Assembly (NCBI GenBank): GCA_000611775.1
Contig: KK106987.1
Coordinates: 1,631,506-1,695,505 of the forward strand
Direction: 5' to 3'
Origin: Umbilicaria muhlenbergii
Taxonomy: Eukaryota > Ascomycota > Lecanoromycetes > Umbilicariales > Umbilicariaceae
DNA: 64,000 nucleotides
The notes beneath the pieces were generated by a model that searched no databases, was not told the DNA's origin, and worked only from the letters and a program-made list of their open reading frames with translations. Position numbers and translations under genes: made by a program. Position 1 is the first letter of the stretch. Each line of letters opens with the position of its first letter. Positions 49,000 through 63,897 of this stretch are shown here, piece after piece.

Positions 49000-50500
49000 A
49001 TTTATAATAAATTAAATATAAGTAAATATAAAATTATTAAAAATAATATATACATAACTCACAGAGGATATTATATTCTTATTATAATAATTAATTATAT
49101 ATTATAATAGGAAAAAAAGTAAGAAACTTACTTGTAATAAAAAATAAAAAATACATCTTCTTCAAAAAAACATCAAATTAATAAGATTAAGCACAAAACT
49201 AAATTATATAAAACTGAGACCTTTTATGATCAAGAAGATTAAAGGAAAAAAAAATTATAAACTTTAATTATTAAGTGAGATAAAAATATATTCAGTATGT
49301 TATATTTTTTTATTAAAGTTAACACACTCAGAAACATCAGTATAATTGTATTTATTAAATCTTAATAATAATAAAGATCAAAATTATGAGATTTAAAAGA
49401 ATTTTAAATATGCAAGAAATTAATAATTAGCTTTATTGTTTAATAAAGTAAAAAAAGTATAAAGATATTAAAATAATATAAGAATTATAAGAAAACTTTA
49501 ACTTCTTAAAGCCTCTTCAATAGTTTTATCAGCAGAATTTAAACTTTCTTAAAATAATAAAGTTAAAATAATATTCATATCTTTAAAAAAGAGTAAAGAG
49601 ATAATTTTGAAAGTATTAACTTTTACATTAACAGCATTCTCTATTTTAAGCTTTTTAATATTATGAAGCTCTATACAGATTAACCTCATGTATTATTTTT
49701 TCACAATAGTAAATTGTTTATACAAGCACTCAACCTTAAATTTTATTTTATTTATTTTAAATAAAGTTTTTTTAATATGTACTTTTGCCTTCTTCTTTTC
49801 TTTATAAAAGTGATCACGTTCTTCATTTATATAATTTAACTCAGCAGTTGAATATATTTAATATTTTACACTTTTTATCTGAAGAAATACAACATTTATA
49901 TAATTATATAATAAGTTCTCCTGATTCTGAGATGAAATTCATCAAGCAATAATGATAATAAGTAGTAGCAGTGAAACAAAACTTGTAAATACAAGTTAAT
50001 AACATATTGTAGAAAGGATTAATAGTTTTTAAAACAAAAAACCTTAAAGAGAAACTTAATATTATAATAAGTTTAATCAGCAAACTGCTGAAAAAAGATC
50101 AATAATTATTTTAATAAATAAAATAAATGAATATTATTATAACCTGATCACATTACTCACTCTGAGTAAAGAGAGTAAAGGGAATGAAGAAGTAATCATG
50201 TCACTCATTATGAGCAAAGAACTTATAAATTATTATATAAACAGGTTCAACTTCTGCATAATTTAAAGCTTCATACTCAACTTAAAATAATAATTATATA
50301 ATATTATTAATAATAACTCTAAATTCAATATATTTCATTAAATAATAATGTATGAAGTACTTGATAAGTCTTAAAACTCATTATAACAGCTTTATATAAT
50401 TAAGAATTTATAAACTGTTATTACAGAACAATAATAGTAACAGTGACATTAACAGTAAAAGTAATAAAAATAAAAAAAATAATGAGAATAGTGTAATATT
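49000..50500. other. Very AT-rich DNA, no gene recognised
   Basis: Probable 3' debris of the family C element. Only short frames, no domain. GC rises abruptly near 50,640. Confidence 0.5.
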
Positions 50501-50504
50501 AATA

Positions 50505-50625
50505 GCTTTAAAGTCTCAAGTTTTCTACTTTCTTCTTTATATTTATTAAATATTCATTTGATAATATATTTAGTTAATTTAATAATATATTTATTTGACC
50601 TTTAAATAATTATTTTATGCAACAT
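50505..50625 (+). repeat. Mutated third copy of the cluster-associated repeat
   Basis: The sequence aligns with about 55,975-56,094 (TAAATATTCATTTG, then ATATTTAG and TTTATTTG-CCT-TAAATAATT). C and G positions of the copy at 55,9xx are mostly T and A here. Only the distal half is present. It marks the boundary between heterochromatin and gene cluster. Confidence 0.75.
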
Positions 50626-50639
50626 CATTCTTCTGCCTT

Positions 50640-51249: not shown

Positions 51250-52856
51250 TTAGAAGCGATCTGTGAGATCTTGTACTGAAGTCACAAGGATATCACATCT
51301 AAGACCTATGGGTACGGCTTCTATTGACCCAGTCTGCCACATCATTTTCTCCGTCGTCAATGATGTATCGACTTGACTGCTGAACTTCAAGAAGAAACAA
51401 GCAAGCAACAGCTTCATCTCCAGCAGAGCCAAATATCTACCTAGACACACTCGAGCCCCATATCCGAAAGGCACAAAATATCTACCCATGGTGTGTAACT
51501 CCTCCGGACTTTTATTAAGCCATCTTCCGGGCTCGAAGATGTCTGGCGACGGGAAGATAGATGCGTTGCGATGTAAAGCAATTGTTGAAGCTGAAACACG
51601 GACCTATATAACCGTGACGTATAAGCTAGCTATTAAACAACGTGGTGGGAGAATTAACAGACCTCTTCCGGTAAGTAGTAAGTGTGGTACTGTCTGCCAC
51701 CCACAGGCACGCACCTCTCCTGGCGACCGCCTGCTCCGGGGTGCATACGAAGTGCTTCATTGACGCAAGCGCCGAAGATTGGTGCAGCATCAATACTCGC
51801 GAAAGAAGGGTAGCCGTCTTGCTCAATTGGGAGTGCGGAGAGTTCGTCCCGGATCTTAGCCTGCCACTCAACGCTTCGACTAAGATGATACACGGCGTAG
51901 ACTAGAGGGACAGCGGTAGCCTCCTGCGCAGCGAGTAAGTTATCATATGCCTCGGCAGCAATATAAGTCTTGTTAAGCGGAGTCCCAGTCTTATATTTCA
52001 CGTTGACCATCCGACGCAGCAAAGTATAGTCTCCGTCGAGGTCTGGATCGGTGATTGCCTTGGTGAATCTTTTATAGTTCCAATCAGCAAGATCGCGCTC
52101 GCCCTTTACACCGGCCTCGTGCGATTCTGGGAAAAAGAATCGACTGAGTCTTGAATGGTAAACGGAAGAGAAATTGAATTTGTAGGGATCCCAAAGCTGC
52201 GCCTGTTTAAGTCCTAACAAAACACGCCTCTCGTCGCAATCGATCTCAAGAACATGAGAACAGTGGCGAGGCCCGTATACAAGGCGAGTTATGTTGTCAA
52301 AAGTATAGCAGTTGAGGAACGGATAGATATTCAAGGATCGACTCGCTGCTAGAGCATTGTTCACGCAGCCAAGAAAGACATGTACCCGCTCACGGACAAA
52401 GTCTTCAACAACCGGGTTGTGGATGGATGTTTTATGGTAAAAACTTGATATCAGCGACCGCTTTTGCTGATGATCCCAGTAAGGCCGGATTGCAAAAAGC
52501 GATCTTTCCCCATAGGCCATAAAATGATCAAAGGTGTCGCTCTTGGCATATTTGCCAGATGTTCCATAGATCTCTCTCATCAGGTCCGGACTCGAGAAAG
52601 AGACTTCGTTCGATCCGATGCAAATGACAGGCCCGTAGTTCTCGTGCCATTCGCGGATCTTGTCGCTTCGCTGCAGTCGAATATCAAAATACACAATGTA
52701 ATACCGGGAGAGCTTGCACAATACAGGTCCAGGCACGTGGCTCAGTGGCGCAAAGAAAAGCGGGTGGATGAGAAAGTAGTAGAGGAGTGCGGGTATGATC
52801 AAAGCCAAACAGACACTAAGGTCGAAGAAGTTGGAAGCTAGTTCTACAAGCTTCAT
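51250..52856 (-). CDS. Cytochrome P450 monooxygenase (first of two)
   Basis: Two exons, 51663-52856 and 51250-51603, give 515 residues, a normal length. The 59-nt intron starts GTCTGT, an unusual donor, and ends TATATAG; joining gives LPEE-VRVSASTIALHRNASIFPSPDIFEPGRWL, which matches the family. Residues 12-35 form a membrane anchor followed by the Pro-rich hinge. The I-helix reads YDNLLAAQEATAVPL (AAQEAT for A-G-x-D/E-T-T), the ExxR motif is EALR and the haem loop is FGYGARVCLGRYLA with the Cys ligand. The enzyme should sit in the ER membrane and hydroxylate or oxidise a small molecule. It is divergently placed from the second P450, 1.13 kb away, and likely belongs to the same cluster. Confidence 0.9.
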
Positions 52857-53441
52857 CTCGAAGTGGCGAATTAATCAAGTAGGAATTGGTATCGGGTTTT
52901 TGGGTGGGCACAGAAAGAAGCAAGCTCGTAAGGCGGTACTCAAGATGACTCACTTGGACCATCGACCACAGGATCATCGAGCGGAACACATTGAAGACTG
53001 GCCTGTTCCAAAAAGACGTGAGAGTCTTAAATAAGATCCTCGTAAGATTGATAATACACTTCACCGCAGATCGCAGACCTGGAGAGCGAATGACCCGGGA
53101 CGATTCAGCGGGTTGATCCTCATCTCAGGCCAACATTCCTCTTCAAGAGCCTTTACATGAAAAATAAGCCCTCGCACTTCCTATAACACTAAGCTCTAGC
53201 TTCAGTACTGTCTTTCTAGAATTTAGCTGCAGAAAGGAAGAGCGACCAGGACCCACGCTGCGAAGAGGAGGTGACATAGTCTGATGTAGTCAGAGCCGAA
53301 GGATCAAACTACTTGTTCGGACCTAACTTTCCATAATCACCACCAGCACCATTAGTTATGTAGAGAGAGTAGGACGACCCCAGATTTAGCCTTGAACAAA
53401 TCATATGTAGTCTGACGCCGCACAAAATCCAAGTTAGCTTA

Positions 53442-53560
53442 TTTTAGATGTCGTGGATGGATTACATAGAGTAGGCTAGATGTGGATGAGCCAATTGAAG
53501 CCAATTGGCTTTGTTGCTGGGGTTCACTCGCAAGGCACGTACTATTCAAAGAGATCACCA
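53442..53560. promoter_or_regulatory. Paired CCAAT motifs in the divergent P450 promoter
   Basis: GAGCCAATTGAAGCCAATTGGCT near 53,489-53,510 contains CCAAT on the plus strand twice and ATTGG on the minus strand. CCAAT boxes bind the HAP complex in fungi. Function here is inferred from position only. Confidence 0.4.
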
Positions 53561-53688
53561 GACGATGAGCTCATGTCATCTCTTACAAAGATGATTCGTC
53601 TTTCTAATGGAGGATTGAAGGAATGTTCCGAAATTGGGGGGCGGTGAAGAATTGATTCCCACGTTTTGACCAACCCCTAGGAAAATAT

Positions 53689-53746
53689 CGTAAAGCAGAG
53701 CTGACGTAAAGCAGAGCTGGCGCAAAGCAGAGCTGACGCAAAGCTG
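53689..53746. promoter_or_regulatory. 16-bp tandem array with TGACGTAA in the divergent P450 promoter
   Basis: Three full units of CGTAAAGCAGAGCTGA (53,689-53,704, 53,705-53,720, 53,721-53,736) and a 10-bp partial unit follow each other with two or three substitutions. The junction of units 1 and 2 makes TGACGTAA, a CRE/bZIP-like site, and units 3/4 give TGACGCAA. A repeated array of this sort between two divergently transcribed cluster genes is a candidate site for a shared regulator. Confidence 0.5.
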
Positions 53747-53989
53747 CACTTGCGTGTCTTTTGCTCCTTCACCGGCATAACATTCCGGGGCTGACGGCAT
53801 GGGCAGAGATTGACACTATGGCTCGAGGAGGCTCGGGCAATTATTTGTCAATTCGTCCTCATATTGTGAAGACATAGTACTAAAGCAGCAGGAAGTCATC
53901 TCCGAGCCTGGAATTTTTATATTTTGACTCTATCCTATACTCTCTACCGCGCGCCTACACTGTACGGGCTCAGAGGCTGCTTTTCCAGA

Positions 53990-55818
53990 ATGTATGACAT
54001 CTTTTTCACCCGAGAAGCTTCGGCCGTTCTCGTCGTTGTACTCAGCATAAGCTGTGTCAGATTCATCTTGTATCCAGTCTTTATATCTCCACTATCCAAG
54101 ATCCCCTGCGTGAACCCGCTCTGCGCCATAACACCGTTGTGGATACTCTGGATCCGTTTCCAAGACAAAGAGTTTGACACCGTGAATGCTGCACATAAGA
54201 GGCTTGGCCCAGTTATCAAGTTAGGTCCAAGAGATATCAGTATCAATTGCATCGATGGGGGCATTCGGACGGTCTACGGCGGAGGCTTTGAAAAGGCTCC
54301 CTGGTATTCTTTCTTTATCAAATATGGGTATTGATGAAACAGGCTGCTTGTTTCGAGGGTCACTGAAAGCTAAGCACAGACTTTAGGGTACACAACACAT
54401 TCTCTTCACAGGATTGTAAAGCCCATTCGATACGCAGGCGAAGGATTTCCAGCGTCTACTCCAAATCTTCCCTCCAAACGTCTTCGCATATGACCGCTGT
54501 GACTAGTAACATCCTTTACAACCGTTTGCTGCCCATTTTGGCTAAGCACGCTAATAACGGCTCTTCAATTGAAATTCTGGAGCTGAACTTCGCCACCGGG
54601 ATAGACTTCGTGAGCTCTTTCTTCTTTGGACTTTCGTGTGGCAGCAACTTTTTGCAGGAAGAGCCGTATAGAAAGTACTGGCTGAATCTCTATAGAGAAG
54701 CCCATAATCACACATTCTGGAGTCAAGAGCTTCCAAGTGTGATGAAGTGGATTGCCAAGCTGGGAGTAGATGCCATGCCTAAGGTAACTCAAGCAAACAA
54801 GGAGCTTGAGGCCTGGGGGCTCAAGTTGTGTGATGCAGCCGAGAATTTCTTATCGGGCCTTGAGCATGGAAACAAAGTTGATGAAGGCCATGTTCCAGTC
54901 GTCTATCAGCAACTCAAGGCCGCCATCAACAAGGAACTCACACAATTGAATCCCGCAGGTTTGTTCACTAGCTTTTCGACATATTGGCTGGAAGTTGCTA
55001 GCGAATTACTTGATCATCTTGGTACGTTACTGCTTTATATCACCTAGTCCATGGCTAACACCTTCATAGTTGCTACACGAGATACCTACGGTAAGCTGAA
55101 GCAATGCGATTTGAACGAAAGTCACTAAACAATTTCAGGCATCGCTGTCTCTTATACCATTTTAGAGATCTCTCGCAATCCAGCCGTACAATCTCGTCTT
55201 CGAAAAGAGCTCCGTGCATTACCGGTACCTTTTTTATATCCCTCTTGCGACGGGCATCTACCTAGTGCAAAGTCACTAGATGCGCTTCCCCTACTGGACG
55301 CTATCATCAAAGAGAGCTTAAGGCTCCGCGTTCACTTCCCTGCGTCCCTGCCACGCTTGACGCCGCCTTCACCCACGACACTGGGTGCTTTCAATGATAT
55401 ACCCTCAAATGTACGAGTCAGTGCCTACGCTTGGTGTCTTCATCGCAACCCGGACGTGTTCCCAGATCCTAATGCGTGGCATCCGGAACGTTGGATTGAT
55501 GAAGACAAGGATGAAAGAAGGGAAGGAGGAGAAAATGCTATGGAGCGATGGTTCTGGACATTTGGGAGTGGACCGAGAATGTGTATTGGTAAAAATCTAG
55601 CCTTTTACAGTAAGTTTGACTAAGATGTTGATCAAACATGACGATCTTCCAAGCTGATGCGGTTGGCGATAATAGTGCTAAAATATCATCTTGCCGCCAT
55701 TTACACCAACTTTTCAACTAGCGTCGTGGATGATCTAGGGTTCGCAAAAAACGGTAATTTCGTATCCGGGAAAGAGGATGATAAGCTCTTTGTGAAGCTT
55801 GAGAGCCTCTCTTTGTAG
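53990..55818 (+). CDS. Cytochrome P450 monooxygenase (second of two)
   Basis: Five exons, 53990-54327, 54387-55021, 55070-55090, 55139-55609 and 55676-55818, give 535 residues. Exon 3 is a 21-nt micro-exon; with it the I-helix reads LLDHLVATRDTYGIAVSYTI, without it the frame breaks. Introns are 48-66 nt GT-AG. An N-terminal membrane anchor (ASAVLVVVLSISCVRFILYPVF) is followed by the Pro-rich segment. Helix-C region NTFSSQDCKAHSIRRRRISSVYSKS is typical. ExxR is ESLR, the PERF-like motif HPERW, and the haem loop FGSGPRMCIGKNLA with Cys. The start at 53,990 is the first ATG in frame. It probably acts in the ER on the same metabolite as its divergent neighbour. The cluster repeat begins within 10 bp of the stop codon. 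Confidence 0.9.
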
Positions 55819-55822
55819 CTCA

Positions 55823-56094
55823 GGCGGTTGTGTTGAATTTCACCGATTCGCCGCCAAGCAGACGTCATTGGGGCAAGGGTTTGGGGCAGGGATTCTAGCG
55901 AGAAAAGCAGTCACGTCAGGGTTAGGAAACGTCATGAGTAGGCTTAGTGAAAAGCTCCTAAATATGCACATCAACAGCTCTAAAGCCTCAAGTTTCTGCT
56001 TCCTCTTCTACGTTCATAAATATTCATTTGGACCGATATTTAGCTAGTCTAATAACACATTTATTTGGCCTCTAAATAATTGTTTCTATACAAC
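55823..56094 (+). repeat. Cluster-associated repeat, copy 1
   Basis: About 270 bp, starting TGTGTTGAATTTC just after the second P450 stop and ending near TTCTATACAAC. It is repeated in inverted orientation at 59,805-60,057 with perhaps 80 percent identity by eye, including CAACAGCTCTAAAGCCTC and TTGGACCGATATTTAG, and half of it again at 50,505-50,625. No terminal repeats or coding sequence were found, so its nature is unknown. Confidence 0.85.
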
Positions 56095-56669
56095 AGGTTG
56101 AGATGACTTAAAGACTTTGTTACGAAAATACTCTTTGAATTAAAAAGTTTGCTCTTAGTGACCTTCGCAGCTCGATGTTAGCTGTGTCTCATCGCTATAT
56201 CTACTGCTCATCTCTGAATAACAATCTACTTGTCCTTGGTCTTACTATTCAATCGCTCATCATAGCACTATTGTCTTGACGTTATGAAAAGTTCGGTGAA
56301 AGAAAGTTTGAAGGATGCTATCACATGTTGCTACATGAATCATGTTTCCCTGCATAATCACAAATTAAGACACATTTCTCAGCCCTCTTCACAAGTATGC
56401 ACAAGCAGCAGTCCTTATAGGTAATGAATAATGTTCAAGTTCATCACAAACCGATGCGAAGCTAAAATAATGAAGTAGTTGTGATCCATTGTTATTCATG
56501 AAGGGCTTTGCAGCCTCTTTTACCCTCGAAGAAAGCCACAAGCATGAACTCTTAACAATGCCTAACCTTAAGACTAATGACGTATCTCAAACAAACATTT
56601 CTCCCTAGCATTCTTAGTCCAAAATAATAACCTGTCATCCCAAGGTACCACCTAAAGCCCCGAAGGCCC
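56095..56669. other. Intergenic, nothing recognised
   Basis: About 575 bp between the repeat and the amidinotransferase stop codon. It should include the latter's 3' untranslated region. Confidence 0.5.
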
Positions 56670-57695
56670 TTACTTATCTCTCACCAAGTCAACCGTCGCA
56701 CAATGAAATGACCCACCGATACTGTAGACATGGCGAAAAGGACAGAGTATAGGCACCATCCCAAGCTCCTTTAGCCACTCAGCAAACGCAATCTCGTGCT
56801 CCTCTACAAGCACTTTCTGACCGTCAAGCACAAGAACATTCATCACCAACCACGCAGACGTCATGTAGAGCGGTGGCTCATCATGAGCCTTGGGAACGAA
56901 GGGAAACTTTCGAAGATCCCAGTCCTTCAGTACCTTGTGCATTCTTAAAGCTTTTTCAGACACTCGATCCGCATTGTAAACCAGCAATCCCTCTCGCAGA
57001 GGCAAGATTGTGGCATCAATGTGCATGGCATGTAGATCGTCCACCGCAAGGATTTCCACAGAATACCCTTCAGGAACGTTGGCCCGCAGATACTCCACAC
57101 CCTTCTCATTCGTGACATGACTGAACTGCCCAAGTAAAGTCTTGCCAAACCGCATGAAATCCGCCGCATCAAACGCAGGCCGACTGTTATTGGTTACCCA
57201 ATGCTTACGTCTTTCGCTATCGCTTTGGTCACTGTAAAGCGTATCCGGTGCCGGCGGGTTCGGTGCCCTGATCACCCGTACAGATGCATCTTTCTCGAGC
57301 TTACACAACACATCCTCATATGCAAGTCTTATCTCCCGGCGACGACATGCCCAGGCGAAGGGGGCTTCGATAATGTGGTTGCCGACAGTTATTAAGCCAT
57401 CGCGAGGCATGGCACCTGTGTAGCCGCCGACTTCACACCAATCAACGACTTTGGGGCGGTGGATCTGCACCCCTTCTTTTTGGAGAATGGAGACGAGTTG
57501 ATCGAGTTCCGCATCTGCCTGAGAGAGAATATCTGGCGGGAAAGGGTTCTTAGGGCTGAAAGATGAGCGATGGTCCGCTGGCATGGTGGCTTCGACCATC
57601 GGGGTGGGCTCGCTGGGGAAGCAGGAGTGGGCGGCTCTGCCTACAATGACGGATCGGAGAGGCGACCATTCATTAGACGCAGAGATGGAAGGCAT
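56670..57695 (-). CDS. Glycine-amidinotransferase-like enzyme (guanidino-group transfer)
   Basis: A single exon of 341 residues from the first in-frame ATG (MPSISASNEWSPLRSVIVG). The family (AGAT, pentein fold) moves the amidino group of L-arginine to an amine. The catalytic residues are in place: Asp of FDAADF (176-179), His of AMHIDAT (225) and the nucleophilic Cys of GGSFHCATVD (332). Further signatures are GAMPRDGLITVGNHIIEAPFAW and VTNEKGVEYL. There is no mitochondrial targeting peptide and the protein is shorter than the animal enzyme, so it is probably cytosolic. In bacteria such enzymes start several guanidino natural products; here the neighbours (decarboxylase, P450s, transporter) suggest a similar biosynthetic role. 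The acceptor amine is unknown. Confidence 0.88.
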   Translation of the reverse strand: MPSISASNEWSPLRSVIVGRAAHSCFPSEPTPMVEATMPADHRSSFSPKNPFPPDILSQADAELDQLVSILQKEGVQIHRPKVVDWCEVGGYTGAMPRDGLITVGNHIIEAPFAWACRRREIRLAYEDVLCKLEKDASVRVIRAPNPPAPDTLYSDQSDSERRKHWVTNNSRPAFDAADFMRFGKTLLGQFSHVTNEKGVEYLRANVPEGYSVEILAVDDLHAMHIDATILPLREGLLVYNADRVSEKALRMHKVLKDWDLRKFPFVPKAHDEPPLYMTSAWLVMNVLVLDGQKVLVEEHEIAFAEWLKELGMVPILCPFRHVYSIGGSFHCATVDLVRDK

Positions 57696-57779
57696 GTTGT
57701 TGAGAGATTGAATGAAATTATTGACAGGAGATAGAACAGGACTCAAATTTCTAATGTGAGCGCAGAGATTCTTTTACAT

Positions 57780-58022
57780 TCAAGCATTCAACATAAGGAT
57801 ACATACAGCTATCGGTAACACCGAAAAGTAAAGCATTGCCCCAAGCAGACTTACATCGTGCCGTGACAGGAAGGAAGCCTTCAAACGCATTGCATACTCC
57901 GCGGCGTTTGAAAAGTCATCTCCTAAGTGCGCACTCTCCACCCTGACGTCCCTCACCGACAATGCTGACTTCATGCTCTCGGAGACCGGTACTGCCCCCA
58001 AGACGTACCAATCCTTATTCAC
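57780..58022 (-). other. Unrecognised short open frame upstream of the amidinotransferase
   Basis: An 80-residue frame (from a non-ATG start; first ATG gives MKSALSVRDVRVESAHLG..) with coding-like codon use up to about 57,855. A GTAAGT donor at that point and a TTAG acceptor at 57,749 would place it as a 5' exon of the amidinotransferase transcript, but the joined frame does not lead into the conserved start. It may be an upstream ORF, a non-coding 5' exon or a gene remnant. No domain is recognised. Confidence 0.25.
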
Positions 58023-58300
58023 CTCATACGCACACGCTGAACAAATTGAATCCTGTGGCCTGACCGTAAGGGTTCCGCAACAACCGATTCGCTAATTTGC
58101 TGAGAGAGGTCATCAAGATGTCAGACGGGAATGATCAGATTTTCTATTGTTCAATGACAAACCCGTAAGCTAAGCCTGTCATGTGGAGTCAATCTTTTTT
58201 GATCACATAAGCACACTAAACATATTATGTGGAGTCACTCCTTTTTGACCACGTACGCACACTCTGAACATCACGAGTCCTGCGGTCTAACAAGGGCGGC
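58010..58300. repeat. Degenerate triplicated motif
   Basis: Three related stretches share CAC-TA-GCACAC-CTGAACA (58,020-58,060, 58,200-58,225, 58,248-58,285), the last two preceded by ATGTGGAGTCA-TC-TTTTTGA. They may be small duplications in the amidinotransferase upstream region or remains of a repeat. Confidence 0.5.
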
Positions 58301-58603
58301 GTAGAAACAGATGGCTTGAGTAATGTAAATGGCATCCACTAGTGAAAGACGTGCTCCACCTATGTTGAGCTACGATGGAACGCCGCCCCATGATCAACGC
58401 ATACTGTAAATCTCACTTCCAGTTTCAAGGAGGTCAAATTAGGTCGGCTAAATCACGGCTTGGCAGTTTCAGTTAATTGGCGCCTCCATGCCAGGGTGAG
58501 CTAGCCGTTCTGCATACTAATTACTAGCGAAAAACTAGACTTCGCTAAGTAGCTGGTGTCGCCACACCGCCTCGATCTTTCGAACTTGTTTTTCCAGCTT
58601 ATT

Positions 58604-58702
58604 TTTCGGCCTCGTATTTCGGCCTCGTATTTCGGCCTCGTATTTCGGCCTCGTATTTCGGCCTCGTATTTCGGCCTCGTATTTCGGCCTCGTATTTCGG
58701 CT
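58604..58702. repeat. 13-bp minisatellite (seven perfect copies)
   Basis: CCTCGTATTTCGG is repeated seven times without change from 58,610 to 58,700, with a partial unit on each side. In either strand it reads as a short periodic peptide (RGRNTRPKYEAEI or RPRISASYFGLVF), which is not a credible gene. Confidence 0.9.
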
Positions 58703-58796
58703 ATATTGAACGCCCGATTTTGGATGTTCGATATGTAGGTAATTCATTGTATAGCATCTAACTAACATGCTCATAGAGATCTCCGCCTCGCCGCCG

Positions 58797-58938
58797 CCGC
58801 CCCACCCCCCCCCCACATAACAGCTGGCTCGTCGACGCCGCTGTCGCCAACTACCACGCCCCCCCCTCCCAAAGAATTCTGAGTAGGCCCCAGCCAACGA
58901 AGTGCTGCCAAATTTCTGCCAGGTAAAGCCCCCCCCCC
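58797..58938. repeat. Cluster of poly-C tracts
   Basis: Runs of 10, 8 and 10 C bases (near 58,806, 58,860 and 58,929) occur within 140 bp, next to GCCGCCGCC. The origin is unclear; such runs are prone to assembly and slippage errors. Confidence 0.7.
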
Positions 58939-59019
58939 AACTGTGAGCTCCTAAAGGCTACCCTAAGGTTAAAGAGCTCAACCTGAGAAACGCTCCCTTC
59001 CAGCTTGCCTTCTTCTGGG

Positions 59020-59138
59020 CTCATCACCACTGATTCACCTTCTTTGCCCGCTCTTTCTCCTCCTCCGCCGCCTTCCTTGCCCGCGCTTTCTCCGCCTCTG
59101 CCGTTGCCTTCACCACGGCCTTCACTGCTGCCGCCGCA
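59020..59138 (-). pseudogene. Small Ala/Glu/Lys-rich coding remnant
   Basis: The minus strand reads AAAVKAVVKATAEAEKARARKAAEEEKERAKKVNQW then stops. This charged helical sequence is like the C-terminal tails of fungal pogo/Fot1-type transposases. It is too short to be sure. The adjoining TIR element at 59,218 may or may not be connected. Confidence 0.3.
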
Positions 59139-59217
59139 TTATAATGTTTGTATGTAAATCAAGTGCAATTCTATCTAAGCAATGATAGAAGAGTTCAATG
59201 AAGGCCCCTGACTTCTA

Positions 59218-59680
59218 TCCCGTTGAATGGCAGTCTGGCAGCCTGGTCCGTGCATGACAGAATAGGAGTAGCTGCCAGCAGATGCTTAGTCAACACCCTC
59301 AATGTTGAAGGTCGTATAAAACACAATAGGTTCAGTTCCTATTGGCGCTGCTTTTGTGGTCTAAGTGTGTTTTTGCGACCTTTCTCTCAAAGGACTAGAA
59401 CTCGTGAGAAGGCGTGTGGAAGCCTGAACTATAGATAACTTCACAGATTCAAAAGATAACAAATACTTTAAACTGTAGGGTTGTAGAGCCTGATAAACTC
59501 TGTAACTTTCAAACTGAACATTTCCTTAGGTCTCTAGAATTTGTGAAATTATTCAGCTGTCAGGTCAAGCGGGTGTATCTTATCATTCACGTTTTGAGAG
59601 GGGATTGACTAAGCAGCCAGCGGTATCTACACCTATTCTGTCATGCACAGACCTGGCTGCCAGACTGCTATTCGAAGGGA
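59218..59680. mobile_element. 463-bp MITE with about 70-bp terminal inverted repeats
   Basis: The left end (TCCC, then GCAGTCTGGCAGCC, TGCATGACAGAATAGG, CTTAGTCAA) is repeated inverted at the right end (59,606-59,680) with about 85 percent identity. TA flanks both sides (59,216-59,217 and 59,681-59,682), the insertion signature of Tc1/mariner-type elements. No transposase frame is present. It is not C-to-T mutated, so it is probably young. It lies between the amidinotransferase and decarboxylase genes. Confidence 0.85.
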
Positions 59681-59804
59681 TATGAAAAACCTCAATTTCC
59701 CCGCAATACTCATATGCCTGCCTTTTACCCCTGATACCGCCCGAAAATTTCACTTTTCCGCGGCTTGATCAAACCAATCTAACACGTCTCTGTGCCTACA
59801 TCAT

Positions 59805-60057
59805 ATTATATAGAACGATTATTTAAAGGCCAAATAAATATATTATTGCAACTAAATATCGGTCCAAATTGACTGTAATGAATGTAAGGAAGAAAGCAGA
59901 AATTCGAGGCTTTAGAGCTGTTGATATACATGTTTGGGAGCTTTTCACTAAGCCTACTCATGACGTGACTGCTTTACTCGCTAGAACCCCTGCCCCAAAC
60001 CCCTGCCCCCATGACCTCTGCTCGGCGGCGAATCGGCGAAATTCAACACATCACCTC
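59805..60057 (-). repeat. Cluster-associated repeat, copy 2 (inverted)
   Basis: Inverted relative to 55,823-56,094. On the minus strand it begins within a few bases of the decarboxylase stop codon, just as copy 1 begins after the P450 stop. The two copies bracket 3.7 kb that contains the amidinotransferase. Confidence 0.85.
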
Positions 60058-61490
60058 TTATTCATGGTGTAGAACAGCCAATGCATTCGGCTCGCTGCAG
60101 ACGTATATGACATCACAATTGTCCGTGTAGCCATTGAAGCGAGAGGCGCAAGCGTTTGAATACGCTATGTATCGTTTATTAGCATAGTTCAATAGCAAGT
60201 GGAGAAACCAATCCCCACCTCCCATATTTTCAAAATACATCCAATCGCCGGCATCAATCTCGCCCGGAAGTCTGCATGATCGATTGATGCAGTCATAACC
60301 ACAGCAGGTTCGGCCCCAAATGCAGTACTCCTGGGTCGAAGCACTCGCTGCAGATACTTCGTCTTGAGCCACGTGAGAACCTTTGTGCCCCAAAGTACGA
60401 GGTGTGAGCGGTTGCTCCAGAACGGCGTTTATGAGATTGCTATACACTCCATCGTTGAGATACAGCATATGTGGCCCAGGCGTCACCTCTGGATCATCAC
60501 AAGGAATCGCTTTCCGACGAGCGGTAACGTTAGTCGCCAGCGTAAAGGCGCTTTCCACGAAGTAGCGGCCAGGCTCAGCGATGATCCGAATATCGGGTGG
60601 AAAATGTTTGTCCAAGGCTCGTCTTAGAGAAGCCGTCGTCGCTACAAATCCATGACCGCCACTAAAGCCTCCTCCAATGTCTATGCTGTGCAAGTTGAAT
60701 CCTCTGGCAAGAGCCTGGTCGAACACAGCGCGGGCATCACTGACCACTTTGACATAGACCTCTGGATCACTTCCGCCAGAGCCAACATGGAAGCTGATCC
60801 CCACGACGTTTAAATCTAGGTCTTTGGCCAGGTCTAACAAAGCCGCGACCGTATCAAGAGGCGCCCCGAACTTTGCACCAAACCTTAAGGGAGCTGAAAC
60901 ATCATCTGCAAATATGCGAAGAAACAGGTCGGCCTGTGGGTTTAGGCGCTTGATTTTTCGTAGCTCCTCTGCGCTGTCGAACGTTGTTTGAGACACGCCT
61001 TGGTCTTTTGCATATTGGATAGCTGACTGAATCTTGCAGGGGTTTGCAAAGATGATACGAGAAGGATCAACTCCTAGATTGAGAACCAGCTGGATTTCCG
61101 CTACAGATGCACAATCGAACCCTATACCAAGAGTAGCCAGAAGGCGGAGAACTCGAGGGTTTGGATTGCATTTGACGGCTACAACATTATCGCATAAGTT
61201 ATCCATCCTATTGCAGTGACTTTGGCTTGCAACTAACCATAGAATGGCGTAACCCTTCCTAGCATCATTTTCCATTTGACGTGTTGGCGGTAAACCTCTC
61301 CCAAGTCCGCTACAAAGAAAGAATCGTCTTCTCCGGGCTTGCAACTATCAAGACGAACGCTCTGCGCGCGATTCTCGATGGTAGACAGAACCATCTGCTC
61401 AGCATCTTGCTGAGCAGCAAACTTGTCTTCGCTTGCGCCATCAAGGATGGAGCATTCTGGAGAGGTGGAAGAAGTGCTTGAGGAAGCCAT
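60058..61490 (-). CDS. Ornithine-decarboxylase-like PLP enzyme with altered substrate site
   Basis: Three exons, 61238-61490, 60219-61178 and 60058-60164, give 439 residues. Introns of 59 and 54 nt restore PFYAVKCN and ENMGAYS-FNGY. The fold-III decarboxylase residues for PLP are all present: Lys of AVKCN (about 87), HVGSG, DIGGGFSG, AEPGRYFVESA and the essential Cys in GRTCCGYD (Cys360 of ODC). Two positions that bind the substrate side chain differ. The specificity-helix Asp (332 in ODC; NDGVYSNLINAVLEQ here) aligns with Glu, and Asp361 aligns with Cys. Chlorella-virus arginine decarboxylase is a known case where Glu in that helix goes with a different substrate. The enzyme may act on arginine or another basic amino acid, or be ODC with relaxed use. 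It is cytosolic, without the long N-terminal degradation domain of house-keeping fungal ODC. The MFS gene is divergent, 592 bp away. Confidence 0.87.
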
Positions 61491-62082
61491 TTCTGATACT
61501 GTGGTAACTCATTAGTAAGGTTGAGGATACTTAGCATATGCTATTTACGTCGTGATGCCCTGTCATAAAAGAAATTACAAGACAACACCAACTTTTCTGA
61601 ACTTCTCCCTATTGCGCTCATGAGGCGACCTAGCCGTATATTTCCCTCTCTATAGAGTTTAAAAGTCTCCCACAGTAAATGAAGAAATTGCCTTCGTAAG
61701 ACTTAATTTTGCTTCGGCTTGAGGTAGAGTGATTGCAAAATAGAAGAGCTGTACATTGCATCAATTTAATGCTCTATGAAGGTCTGTTGTGGGATGGCGA
61801 GTCTCTAAGTTGCTACGGCAAAGATAAGGAATCCTAAAAGCTCAGAACTTATGACAAATGGTAATCCACGGAGCTACGCACCTTCACATGACATATAGTC
61901 CATTGCGGAAGGATCACTAGCTTCTCGTCCGTGTTGCACGGCTGGAAGAAGGCAACCCCACTACTACCTCAGTGGCTGAATCGTGTTCCGGTACACCGCT
62001 TCTTCGAGTCTTTACTAACGCCTATTAACGGAATTTTCGGCTGTGATGACTTCTCCACTCTCACTCCCCTTCGTAGAGCAAC
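61491..62082. promoter_or_regulatory. Divergent promoter of decarboxylase and MFS genes
   Basis: 592 bp lie between the two start codons. No 16-bp array like that in the P450 promoter was found. A TATA-like TATATTTC is at about 61,637. Specific sites cannot be assigned. Confidence 0.45.
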
Positions 62083-63897
62083 ATGAATGAACAACGGCCA
62101 CCACATGCAAGATCCGACATACGCAATCGCCTGCAGGACTGTGACCTGGTCCTGGACGCAGACAACTATGTGCGCTGGCACCGACGGAATCCTGGTCATC
62201 CTCGGAATTGGACTCCGCAAAGGAAGGCATACGATATTGGAATCATTATGGGACTAGAATTCTTCAAGTGCGCAACAGACGACCCATGAGTTGTGTAGAA
62301 TACTGACACGATAGTTTGAAGTGCGGCAATGAGCACAGTTGGTGTATGTTATAGTCCTACTTGTTCTAGCTACTTTGCTTAGGATCCATCTTAATAACGA
62401 GCAATAGACTGCCGTCGCCGACCAAGCCCGACATGACTATGCCATCAGTCAAACAGTTGGATATTTTGTCTTCACCACAGTGTCTGCCGCCTCTCCATTC
62501 GTTTCGTGGCTATTACTGTGGCATACACTGACAAGATGTAGCTACCTCATCGGAGAGTGTGTTGGCGGTGTATTTCTTCCACCCATTTCAGAAACATTTG
62601 GCCGCAAACCACTATACGTGACGGCTTCAATCGTATCATGTGCCTTCTCTGCACTGATAGCTTCTGTTCCGTCCTCAGCAAAGGGCTCGCTGACAATGGT
62701 CGTTGTTGGGCGACTCTTTTGTGGAATTGCATCCTCCACGCCGGCCACGATAGCCCCCGGTAGTCTTGAGGACATATATACCCCAGAGCATCGCCTCTGG
62801 GGCGTCTTTGCCTGGACAACGGCTTCAAACCTTGGGCTCGTCTTTGGACCCATATTCTCGAGTTATGTTACAGCATATTGGGGATGGTAAATGAGCGCCA
62901 TACTCCCTTTTACAGATTCAGCAAAGCTTACTTTCAAAGGCGCTGTGTTTTCTACGTGGCTACCGTAATCTTGGGCCTAGGGGTTTTTATCTCTCTTGGC
63001 CTGCGCGAAAGTCGTACCAACCTTCTGCTGCAGCGGAAGATCAACGCCCTTCAGGCAGAAATAGGCGACCACGCCCTACGCATTCACAACGCAGATGAGA
63101 TGATAACCTTCCAAACATGGGTTCAAGACGCACTTATGCGTCCACTCCGCCTTCTCGTCACAGAGCCTATCGTTATTCTCTGTTCCGCCTTGAACGCTAT
63201 ATCTTTCAGTTTGATTTACGGTCTCACAGAAGCATTAACGATTGTCTACACATCTTTTGGATTCTCAGCGCAGGCCAGCTCCCTAGCCTTTATCCCAATC
63301 ATGATTGGTGTTCTCACGTCTGTCTTCTCTCGCGTTTATGACCAACGACGCTTGGATCGCCTACGTCGCAACCGCATTCTTCTCACTCCTGAGTCAAAGA
63401 TCGCTTCTTTCGCTGTGGCAGTTCCAGCCCTTGCTATCGGATTGTGGTGGTTCGCATGGAGCATACCTCCAGTGGTTACCAACGTTCCCTGGATTGTCTC
63501 CATGCTAGCACTTGTCCTTGTTGGTTTTGCAACGAACGATCTCGACACGGTCCTCTGCGGGTACATGGCGGATAGCTATACTGTCTACGCGGCCTCTGCA
63601 TTTTCAGCCTTGACTCTACTCCGGGCTCTTCTTTCCGGCGTGTTGCCACTCTTTGCAGGAATCATGTTTACTGGTTTGGGTTCTAACATCGCAGCAAGTA
63701 TACTGGCGGCTATCGCAACGGCGTTCTGCGTCAGTCCTTTTGTACTACTGAGGCATGGGCAGGCGTTAAGAGAGAGAAGTGTGTTTGCGAAGTATAGCCT
63801 GGATGTTTCACTTGAGGCTTTACCAGAAGAAGGGGACCAATTAGCGGAAATAGGGATGTTAATCGTTGACGAAAGAGAGGTAGAAACAATGCTATAG
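62083..63897 (+). CDS. MFS transporter, DHA1 drug:H+ antiporter type
   Basis: Five exons, 62083-62267, 62322-62343, 62408-62481, 62542-62886 and 62940-63897, give 527 residues. Exon 2 is only 22 nt (NAAMSTVG). The third intron has a weak GTCTGC donor, chosen because it restores TTVYLIGECVGGVFLPPISETFGRK. The N-terminal motif NPGHPRNWTPQRK, the GRK loop after helix 2, GWRCVFYVATVILG and RESR after helix 6 are DHA1 hallmarks; about 12 membrane helices can be counted. The class includes toxin and polyamine exporters such as Tpo1. Within this cluster it would export the product or protect the cell. Without intron 3 the protein would gain 20 residues, so that boundary is less certain. Confidence 0.85.

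What the first reader, a model, noticed from the sequence alone, without database searches (positions are those of the whole stretch)
51250..63897. Candidate guanidino/polyamine biosynthetic gene cluster without a classical core enzyme
Seen: two P450s, an amidinotransferase with intact Asp/His/Cys, an ODC-like decarboxylase and a DHA1 exporter lie in 12.6 kb, arranged as two divergent pairs around the amidinotransferase. Known: amidinotransferases open guanidino natural-product pathways in bacteria, and DHA1 pumps often export cluster products. Inference: a small arginine/ornithine-derived guanidino metabolite is made, oxidised twice and exported. I know of no described fungal cluster with exactly this set, but I could not search.
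Basis: partly seen in the sequence, partly recalled or inferred. Interest (0 to 1): 0.85.

Follow-up and report, generated by a model that had tools for sequence, protein, structure and literature searches.

The report
Lichen fungus guanidino-amine gene cluster candidate
Five intact neighbouring genes in a lichen-forming fungus look like a small pathway that puts a guanidino group on an amino acid, removes its carboxyl group, oxidises the product and pumps it out, although no product is known and only parts of the gene set were seen together in other fungi.

Summary
Five intact genes (two P450s, an amidinotransferase, an ODC-fold decarboxylase, an MFS pump) fill 51250-63897 as two divergent pairs around the amidinotransferase, at the end of contig C7 of a Lasallia-like lichen fungus. 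New: the decarboxylase is not the housekeeping ODC. It belongs to a second ODC lineage (100/99) in which the substrate residue Asp332 is Glu in 10 of 10 rows (Asp in 111 of 111 others), the change linked in print to arginine use; the window gene and two relatives have also lost Asp361 (Cys). In four Botryosphaeriales this ODC2 shares a contig with a relative of the pump; on two other contigs a neighbouring-group amidinotransferase shares a contig with a related pump. Whole-set synteny was not shown, P450s were not tested elsewhere, and the two contigs of the closest decarboxylases showed neither partner in the listed hits. Best reading: the amidinotransferase makes a guanidino amino acid (homoarginine favoured), the altered decarboxylase makes the guanidino-amine, P450s oxidise it, the pump exports it, as at the start of the sponge oro pathway. 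Substrates and product are inferred. The contig ends 117 bases past the pump, so a core enzyme beyond is not excluded.

The parts
51250..52856 (-). P450-1, 2 exons, 515 aa, heme motif FGYGARVCLG present
   Evidence: Pfam p450 E 7e-48; next best match in the genome by E-value is 29% identical over residues 33-389
53990..55818 (+). P450-2, 5 exons, 535 aa, heme motif FGSGPRMCIG present; divergent from P450-1
   Evidence: Pfam p450 E 4.1e-39; 45% paralog on C2 that breaks within two residues of the last intron
55831..56095 (+). solo LTR (TGTTG...CAACA, 5-bp target duplication GGTTG), 12 bases after the P450-2 stop; later insertion
   Evidence: 41 matches of this repeat in the genome, a lower bound
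56670..57695 (-). amidinotransferase of the AGAT/HsvA/SxtG family, intronless, 341 aa, Asp176/His225/Cys332 intact
59804..60048 (-). second solo LTR of the same family (target duplication TGATG), 9 bases after the ODC-like stop
60058..61490 (-). ODC-fold PLP decarboxylase (ODC2 lineage), 3 exons, 439 aa; Asp332 position is Glu339, Asp361 position is Cys377
62083..63897 (+). MFS transporter, DHA1-type by the names sources give its relatives ('MFS multidrug transporter'), 4 exons, 547 aa; divergent from the ODC-like gene

Best explanation
A small non-canonical biosynthetic cluster for an oxidised guanidino-amine. Most likely order: (1) the amidinotransferase moves the amidino group of arginine to the side-chain amine of an amino acid, lysine (giving homoarginine) favoured; (2) the ODC2 enzyme, in which Asp332 is Glu and Asp361 is Cys, decarboxylates that guanidino amino acid to a guanidino-amine such as homoagmatine; (3) two P450s oxidise it; (4) the transporter exports it. 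Shown: five intact genes, their enzyme classes, conserved catalytic residues, the separate ODC lineage, its two substrate-site changes, and partial linkage elsewhere. Inferred: substrates, order, product, co-regulation.
For: Catalytic residues of the amidinotransferase are conserved. In the decarboxylase the positions of Lys69, Asp88, His197, Glu274, Arg277, Tyr323, Cys360 and Tyr389 are kept. It is not the housekeeping enzyme, which lies on C3; it groups with P0122, P0125 and 7 Botryosphaeriales rows, 100/99 with animal ODCs as outgroup, 38 rows. Asp332 is Glu in 10 of 10 ODC2 rows and Asp in 111 of 111 other fungal-search rows; Asp361 is Cys in 3 of 121, the window gene, P0122 and P0125. In print, Asp332 and Asp361 interact with the substrate, and Glu at 332 was called a key determinant of the change from ornithine to arginine in an algal-virus enzyme (PMC2217671, passages); Asp361 binds the distal amine, and replacing the corresponding residue of a related decarboxylase widened its substrates (PMC8277567, passages). 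ODC2 and MFS share a contig in Diplodia corticola, D. intermedia, Phyllosticta citrichinensis and Saccharata proteae (4 coincidences against 0.02 expected). The MFS tree also puts the window gene with the Botryosphaeriales set (SH-aLRT 96). Amidinotransferase, ODC-fold decarboxylase selective for homoarginine, and two P450s open the sponge oro pathway (PMC12833800, section 10 and passages).
Against: The contigs of P0122 and P0125 (22185 and 40804 bases) match no contig length among the listed amidinotransferase or MFS hits, and no contig was shared by amidinotransferase and ODC. Lignoscripta atroalba has a 73% amidinotransferase but no close ODC2 in the listed hits. The amidinotransferase is widespread in Pezizomycotina (702 hits), so it may have a job of its own. 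The two contigs with amidinotransferase plus MFS carry members of neighbouring groups, not of the window's own clades. D332E was reported insufficient alone to explain the arginine use of the viral enzyme and also occurs in antizyme inhibitor, an inactive ODC homologue; an Entamoeba enzyme with both residues replaced showed no activity on arginine or lysine (PMC2217671). P450 linkage was not tested. No promoter word is shared beyond chance. No regulator gene was recognised among the ORFs tested.
Confidence: 0.46

Rival explanations
1. Chance neighbourhood: a conserved ODC2-MFS pair, a P450 pair and a widely distributed amidinotransferase lie side by side at a contig end but do not act in one pathway. 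ODC2 may then be an arginine decarboxylase whose agmatine-type product is exported.
For: Amidinotransferase relatives are spread over Pezizomycotina; ODC2 linked to MFS without a seen amidinotransferase in 4 Botryosphaeriales; two ODC2 contigs that match neither partner in the listed hits; no shared promoter words.
Against: Two divergent pairs packed in 12.6 kb beside a long AT-rich stretch; complementary chemistry; an amidinotransferase and a related transporter share two other contigs; the only other amidinotransferase match in this genome has broken frames; the extra Asp361 to Cys change is seen only in the window gene and two near relatives.
Confidence: 0.26
2. Diamine first: the ODC-like enzyme makes a diamine (putrescine, cadaverine or another) and the amidinotransferase guanylates it, as the polyamine amidinotransferase HsvA does.
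For: HsvA is the best sequence match among solved structures (E 1.6e-59); its polyamine activity I saw only in a reference title in PMC12833800. An Entamoeba enzyme with both residues replaced was not active on arginine or lysine.
Against: Both residues that meet the substrate's far end are replaced, which argues against a plain ornithine or lysine decarboxylase; AGAT matches almost as well (E 2.1e-58), so the best hit says little about the acceptor.
Confidence: 0.13
3. Fragment of a larger, canonical cluster whose core enzyme lies beyond the end of contig C7; the guanidino-amine would be one building block.
For: The contig ends 117 bases after the transporter stop, and the last 74 bases read show no telomere repeat.
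Against: To the left, no ORF of 150 aa or more lies between 25.4 and 50.0 kb; no core enzyme was recognised in the ORFs tested at 50.0-64.0 kb.
Confidence: 0.12
4. ODC2 is no enzyme any more but a regulator of the antizyme-inhibitor kind.
For: Asp332 to Glu also occurs in antizyme inhibitor (PMC2217671).
Against: The PLP lysine, Cys360 and six other checked positions are kept; it is linked to a transporter in other fungi.
Confidence: 0.03

Closest known systems
oro gene bundle of sponges (PMC12833800)
   Same: Amidinotransferase, ODC-fold (group IV) PLP decarboxylase and two P450s; the first two turn lysine into homoagmatine in that paper.
   Different: Animal genes spread over large regions with unrelated genes between; also CoA ligase, acyltransferase and halogenase, none recognised here. 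Substrates of the fungal enzymes are untested, and the active-site residues of OroE were not given in the passages read.
Chlorella-virus arginine decarboxylase (PBCV-1; PDB 2nva, 2nv9)
   Same: ODC-fold enzyme with Glu at the Asp332 position (PMC2217671); it is also a sequence match of the window protein.
   Different: Whether it keeps Asp361 was not looked up here; the window protein is closer to ODC by score.
E-64 clusters cp1/cp2 of Aspergillus (PMC12568646)
   Same: Fungal clusters without NRPS that carry a PLP decarboxylase and use amines such as agmatine (passages).
   Different: Core is an Fe/alpha-KG oxygenase plus two amide-forming enzymes; 'amidino' has 0 occurrences in the main text.
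AGAT / HsvA / SxtG amidinotransferases
   Same: Homology over nearly the full length and the Asp/His/Cys positions.
   Different: Fungal branch with its own conserved AMHID surroundings; acceptor unknown; scores below the Pfam ADI cut-off (14.1 against 22.8 bits).
Eukaryotic ornithine decarboxylase
   Same: Both Pfam domains and eight of ten checked active-site positions.
   Different: Asp332 is Glu and Asp361 is Cys; separate lineage from the housekeeping gene.

Membership tests
AGAT-type amidinotransferase | full-length homology and catalytic Asp/His/Cys | tested here: met
AGAT-type amidinotransferase | Pfam PF02274 above its cut-off | tested here: not met
   14.1 against 22.8 bits; own-genome search with this model 0 hits; homology stands
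Ornithine decarboxylase (as an enzyme) | ODC fold domains, PLP lysine, Cys360 | tested here: met
Ornithine decarboxylase (as an enzyme) | Asp332 and Asp361, which interact with the substrate | tested here: not met
   Glu339 and Cys377; so not filed as an ODC by function
oro-type homoagmatine pathway | amidinotransferase, group IV decarboxylase and two P450s together | tested here: met
   presence only
oro-type homoagmatine pathway | CoA ligase, acyltransferase and halogenase | tested here: not met
   none recognised at 50.0-64.0 kb; Pfam was run on 8 of the 20 ORFs listed and on four of the five final proteins, the fifth against NCBIfam
oro-type homoagmatine pathway | lysine to homoarginine to homoagmatine activity | not testable with these tools
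   needs enzyme assays
Fungal biosynthetic gene cluster | conserved co-localisation in other genomes | tested here: inconclusive
   ODC2-MFS in 4 species, amidinotransferase-MFS on 2 contigs of neighbouring groups, none with all genes; P450s searched in the own genome only
Fungal biosynthetic gene cluster | co-expression | not testable with these tools
   no expression data
E-64 cluster | Fe/alpha-KG oxygenase plus two amide-forming enzymes | tested here: not met
   none recognised among the ORFs tested at 50.0-64.0 kb

The most novel reading that the evidence does not exclude
A fungus evolved, independently of sponges, the same opening for an alkaloid pathway, and its decarboxylase shows the route: an old ODC copy first gained Asp332 to Glu (guanidino substrates, exported; kept in Botryosphaeriales), then, with an amidinotransferase beside it, lost Asp361 and took a longer guanidino amino acid such as homoarginine; two P450s turn the resulting homoagmatine into an exported alkaloid.
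Probability: 0.25. Interest if true: 0.74.

Novelty: new variant of a known kind. Interest (0 to 1): 0.58.

Why it matters
Standard cluster finders look for core enzymes and would probably pass over this set. If it works as proposed, lichen fungi have an overlooked class of guanidino alkaloids, the second ODC lineage with its Glu332 is a simple marker with which to find more of them, and the two substrate-site changes are a directly testable case of how a primary-metabolism decarboxylase is re-tuned for a natural product. It would also be an independent parallel to the pathway recently described in sponges.

Tried and rejected
Broken P450-2: the 3' end first looked frame-shifted, because the obvious acceptor gives the wrong phase. 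An intron 55610-55675 keeps the frame, and a C2 paralog breaks within two residues of it, so the gene is taken as intact.

Amidinotransferase as cargo of a transposon: the inverted repeats on both sides are two separate solo LTRs with different target duplications (GGTTG, TGATG), not terminal repeats of one element.

Recounting the mouse numbering and a new alignment showed that it lies further on and is Glu here. The best explanation was raised from 0.42 to 0.46 and the diamine-first rival lowered from 0.18 to 0.13 for that reason; interest was raised from 0.55 to 0.58.

Midpoint-rooted ODC tree: the root lay almost at the three-way split, so the ODC2 clade was not shown by it. It was rebuilt with mouse and fish ODC as outgroup. 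Long-branch attraction is not excluded; the fish row is very long and looks like a rearranged, fused prediction.

Second gene set around the amidinotransferase copy on C2 (20 kb, part of it N) or the related transporter on C4 (20 kb): judged by eye from the ORF lists, ordinary genes, no P450, ODC or intact amidinotransferase.

Shared promoter words between the two divergent promoters and the amidinotransferase promoter: not clearly more than in shuffles (11 nine-letter words against 7.9 expected for one of three pairs, below expectation for the other two).

Bacterial neighbourhoods: 2 distant loci (31-32%) out of 58 candidate stretches, not followed.

Papers: 10 of 10 searches. No fungal cluster with an amidinotransferase and an ODC-like enzyme was seen in those listings; the library lacks most subscription journals. 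PMC12833800: section 10 and passages. PMC12568646, PMC8277567, PMC2217671, PMC6723126 and PMC10967133: passages only. The others: listing or abstract start only.

It shows same contig, not distance (contigs of 0.45 to 2.5 Mb for the named species). Only the best 120 hits per search were visible (of 702, 6320 and 131), and the contig shown is the longest of a cluster. In one search my typed ODC list held 119 of 120 rows (P0177, 689080, left out by mistake; that length is in neither other list), and ids after it are shifted by one. A 1707-base coincidence there was dropped as chance: short contigs, different sources. Phyllosticta capitalensis and Neofusicoccum parvum have both genes, but the longest contigs listed differ. 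P0122 and P0125 are unnamed; that they come from lichens is a guess. Both are fragments: P0125 does not reach Lys69, and both seem to run into an intron before Tyr389.
Full report
What is there. The window ends 14 bases before the end of contig C7 (1,695,519 bases) of a 34.8-Mb, 7-contig genome. Its housekeeping ODC on C3 is 96% identical to that of Lasallia pustulata; that Lasallia is an Umbilicariaceae lichen fungus is my own knowledge. The right 13.4 kb has 47% GC and lies beside a long AT-rich stretch that drops to 20% GC. In it lie five genes that can all be modelled as intact: P450-1, P450-2, amidinotransferase, ODC-like decarboxylase, MFS transporter. The P450s form one divergent pair and the ODC-like gene and the transporter another, with the amidinotransferase between. 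The two P450s are not recent duplicates: they match each other at 28-40% over stretches.

Amidinotransferase. Its best matches among solved structures are HsvA (E 1.6e-59), human AGAT and SxtG, over nearly the full length. Asp176, His225 and Cys332 are invariant in 10 of 10 aligned fungal sequences. 702 relatives reach E 0.001; the 120 listed include many named Pezizomycotina. The genome has one more copy, on C2, whose frames are broken and whose neighbours look ordinary. In a tree of 122 rows the window gene sits in an 8-row group (SH-aLRT 96) that includes Lignoscripta, while the C2 copy sits in a neighbouring 9-row group (99) with P0007 and P0011. The acceptor substrate cannot be read from these data.

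Decarboxylase. It keeps both Pfam domains and, by alignment with mouse ODC, Lys69, Asp88, His197, Glu274, Arg277, Tyr323, Cys360 and Tyr389 (roles recalled except where a paper is named). Two positions differ. At Asp332 there is Glu in 10 of 10 ODC2 rows, against Asp in 111 of 111 other rows. At Asp361 there is Cys in 3 of 121 rows: the window gene (Cys377), P0122 and P0125; the 7 Botryosphaeriales ODC2 rows keep Asp. P0122 and P0125 are 72-74% identical to the window protein over the parts they cover. With mouse and fish ODC as outgroup the ten form one clade (100/99; 38 rows), apart from the housekeeping ODCs. One of the seven, P0124, has no species name; it is counted with Botryosphaeriales for its place in the tree.

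What the changes may mean. [quoted passage not shown] The same passages say that this change alone was insufficient, that it also occurs in the inactive antizyme inhibitor, and that an Entamoeba enzyme with both residues replaced had no activity on arginine or lysine. A second paper has Asp361 of the other subunit bind the distal amine of the substrate, and replacement of the corresponding residue in a diaminopimelate decarboxylase widened its substrates (PMC8277567, passages). So the lineage points towards guanidino substrates and the window branch away from the usual distal-amine contact; the true substrate is inference.

Linkage elsewhere. The protein searches give contig lengths, so equal lengths mark shared contigs. 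ODC2 and MFS share a contig in Diplodia corticola (591978), D. intermedia (451216), Phyllosticta citrichinensis (2519586) and Saccharata proteae (934362): 4 coincidences over 3 kb against 0.02 expected from shifted lengths, and the species names agree. Two further species with both genes gave different longest contigs. The MFS tree of 104 rows puts the window gene, with P0256, beside the Botryosphaeriales genes (14-row set, SH-aLRT 96), as the ODC tree does. Amidinotransferase and MFS share two contigs from ENA sources (47077 and 24720; 2 against 0.13 expected, and 2 was also the highest of the 600 shifts); these are members of neighbouring groups on both sides. Against: no contig was shared by amidinotransferase and ODC in the lists; the contigs of P0122 (22185) and P0125 (40804) match none of the 120 listed lengths of either partner; Lignoscripta has a close amidinotransferase and no close ODC2 listed. 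So parts of the set recur, the whole was not seen, and the P450s were not tested outside this genome.

Later insertions. 55831-56095 and 59804-60048 are solo LTRs of one family with different 5-bp target duplications, 12 and 9 bases after the stops of P450-2 and the ODC-like gene. The search with the left copy returned 41 matches in the genome, a lower bound. They do not make the amidinotransferase a transposon cargo.

How it may work. The parts list equals the opening of the sponge oro pathway: OroA turns lysine into homoarginine, OroE, an ODC-fold enzyme, turns homoarginine into homoagmatine with no activity on ornithine or arginine and minimal activity on lysine, and two P450s are proposed to act in the pathway (PMC12833800, section 10 and passages). 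On that model the fungal cluster makes homoarginine, decarboxylates it with the re-tuned ODC2, oxidises it and exports it. Rough odds: the genes act together 0.6; amidination before decarboxylation 0.7 given that; lysine as acceptor 0.5 given that. The diamine-first order, a chance neighbourhood, and a cluster cut by the contig end remain open. A search for 'homoagmatine' and 'fung' listed 3 papers with both, by title on a tunicate, plant cadaverine and a sponge; their texts were not read.

Verdict. Real genes, a real and patterned oddity in the decarboxylase, partial synteny support; product unknown. A new variant of a known kind, interest 0.58.

Noticed in passing
window 55831-56095 and 59804-60048: Two solo LTRs of one family, 12 and 9 bases after a stop codon; the search with the left copy returned 41 matches in the genome. 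An insertion preference just downstream of genes would be worth testing.
   Followed up: partly
window 50480-50628: A diverged, AT-rich relic of the same LTR at the edge of the AT-rich block.
   Followed up: no
window 59216-59682: 85-bp inverted arms 297 bp apart (82% complementary), a MITE-like element between the amidinotransferase and the ODC-like gene.
   Followed up: no
window 53689-53752 and 58578-58714: A 16-bp tandem repeat in the promoter between the two P450s and a 13-bp tandem repeat between the amidinotransferase and the ODC-like gene; possible regulatory sites, not tested.
   Followed up: no
window 26000-50600: About 25 kb of AT-rich DNA (down to 20% GC) without an ORF of 150 aa or more up to 50.0 kb.
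   Followed up: partly
G000 C2:2207147-2208164: Second amidinotransferase copy with broken frames between ordinary-looking genes; two relatives of its group elsewhere share contigs with a related transporter.
   Followed up: partly
PMC6723126, proteome section: A 'lysine amidinotransferase' (MAC_04410) is ninth, with log2 1.56 after light, in a table that stands before the 'ten most downregulated' proteins of Metarhizium acridum (passage).
   Followed up: no
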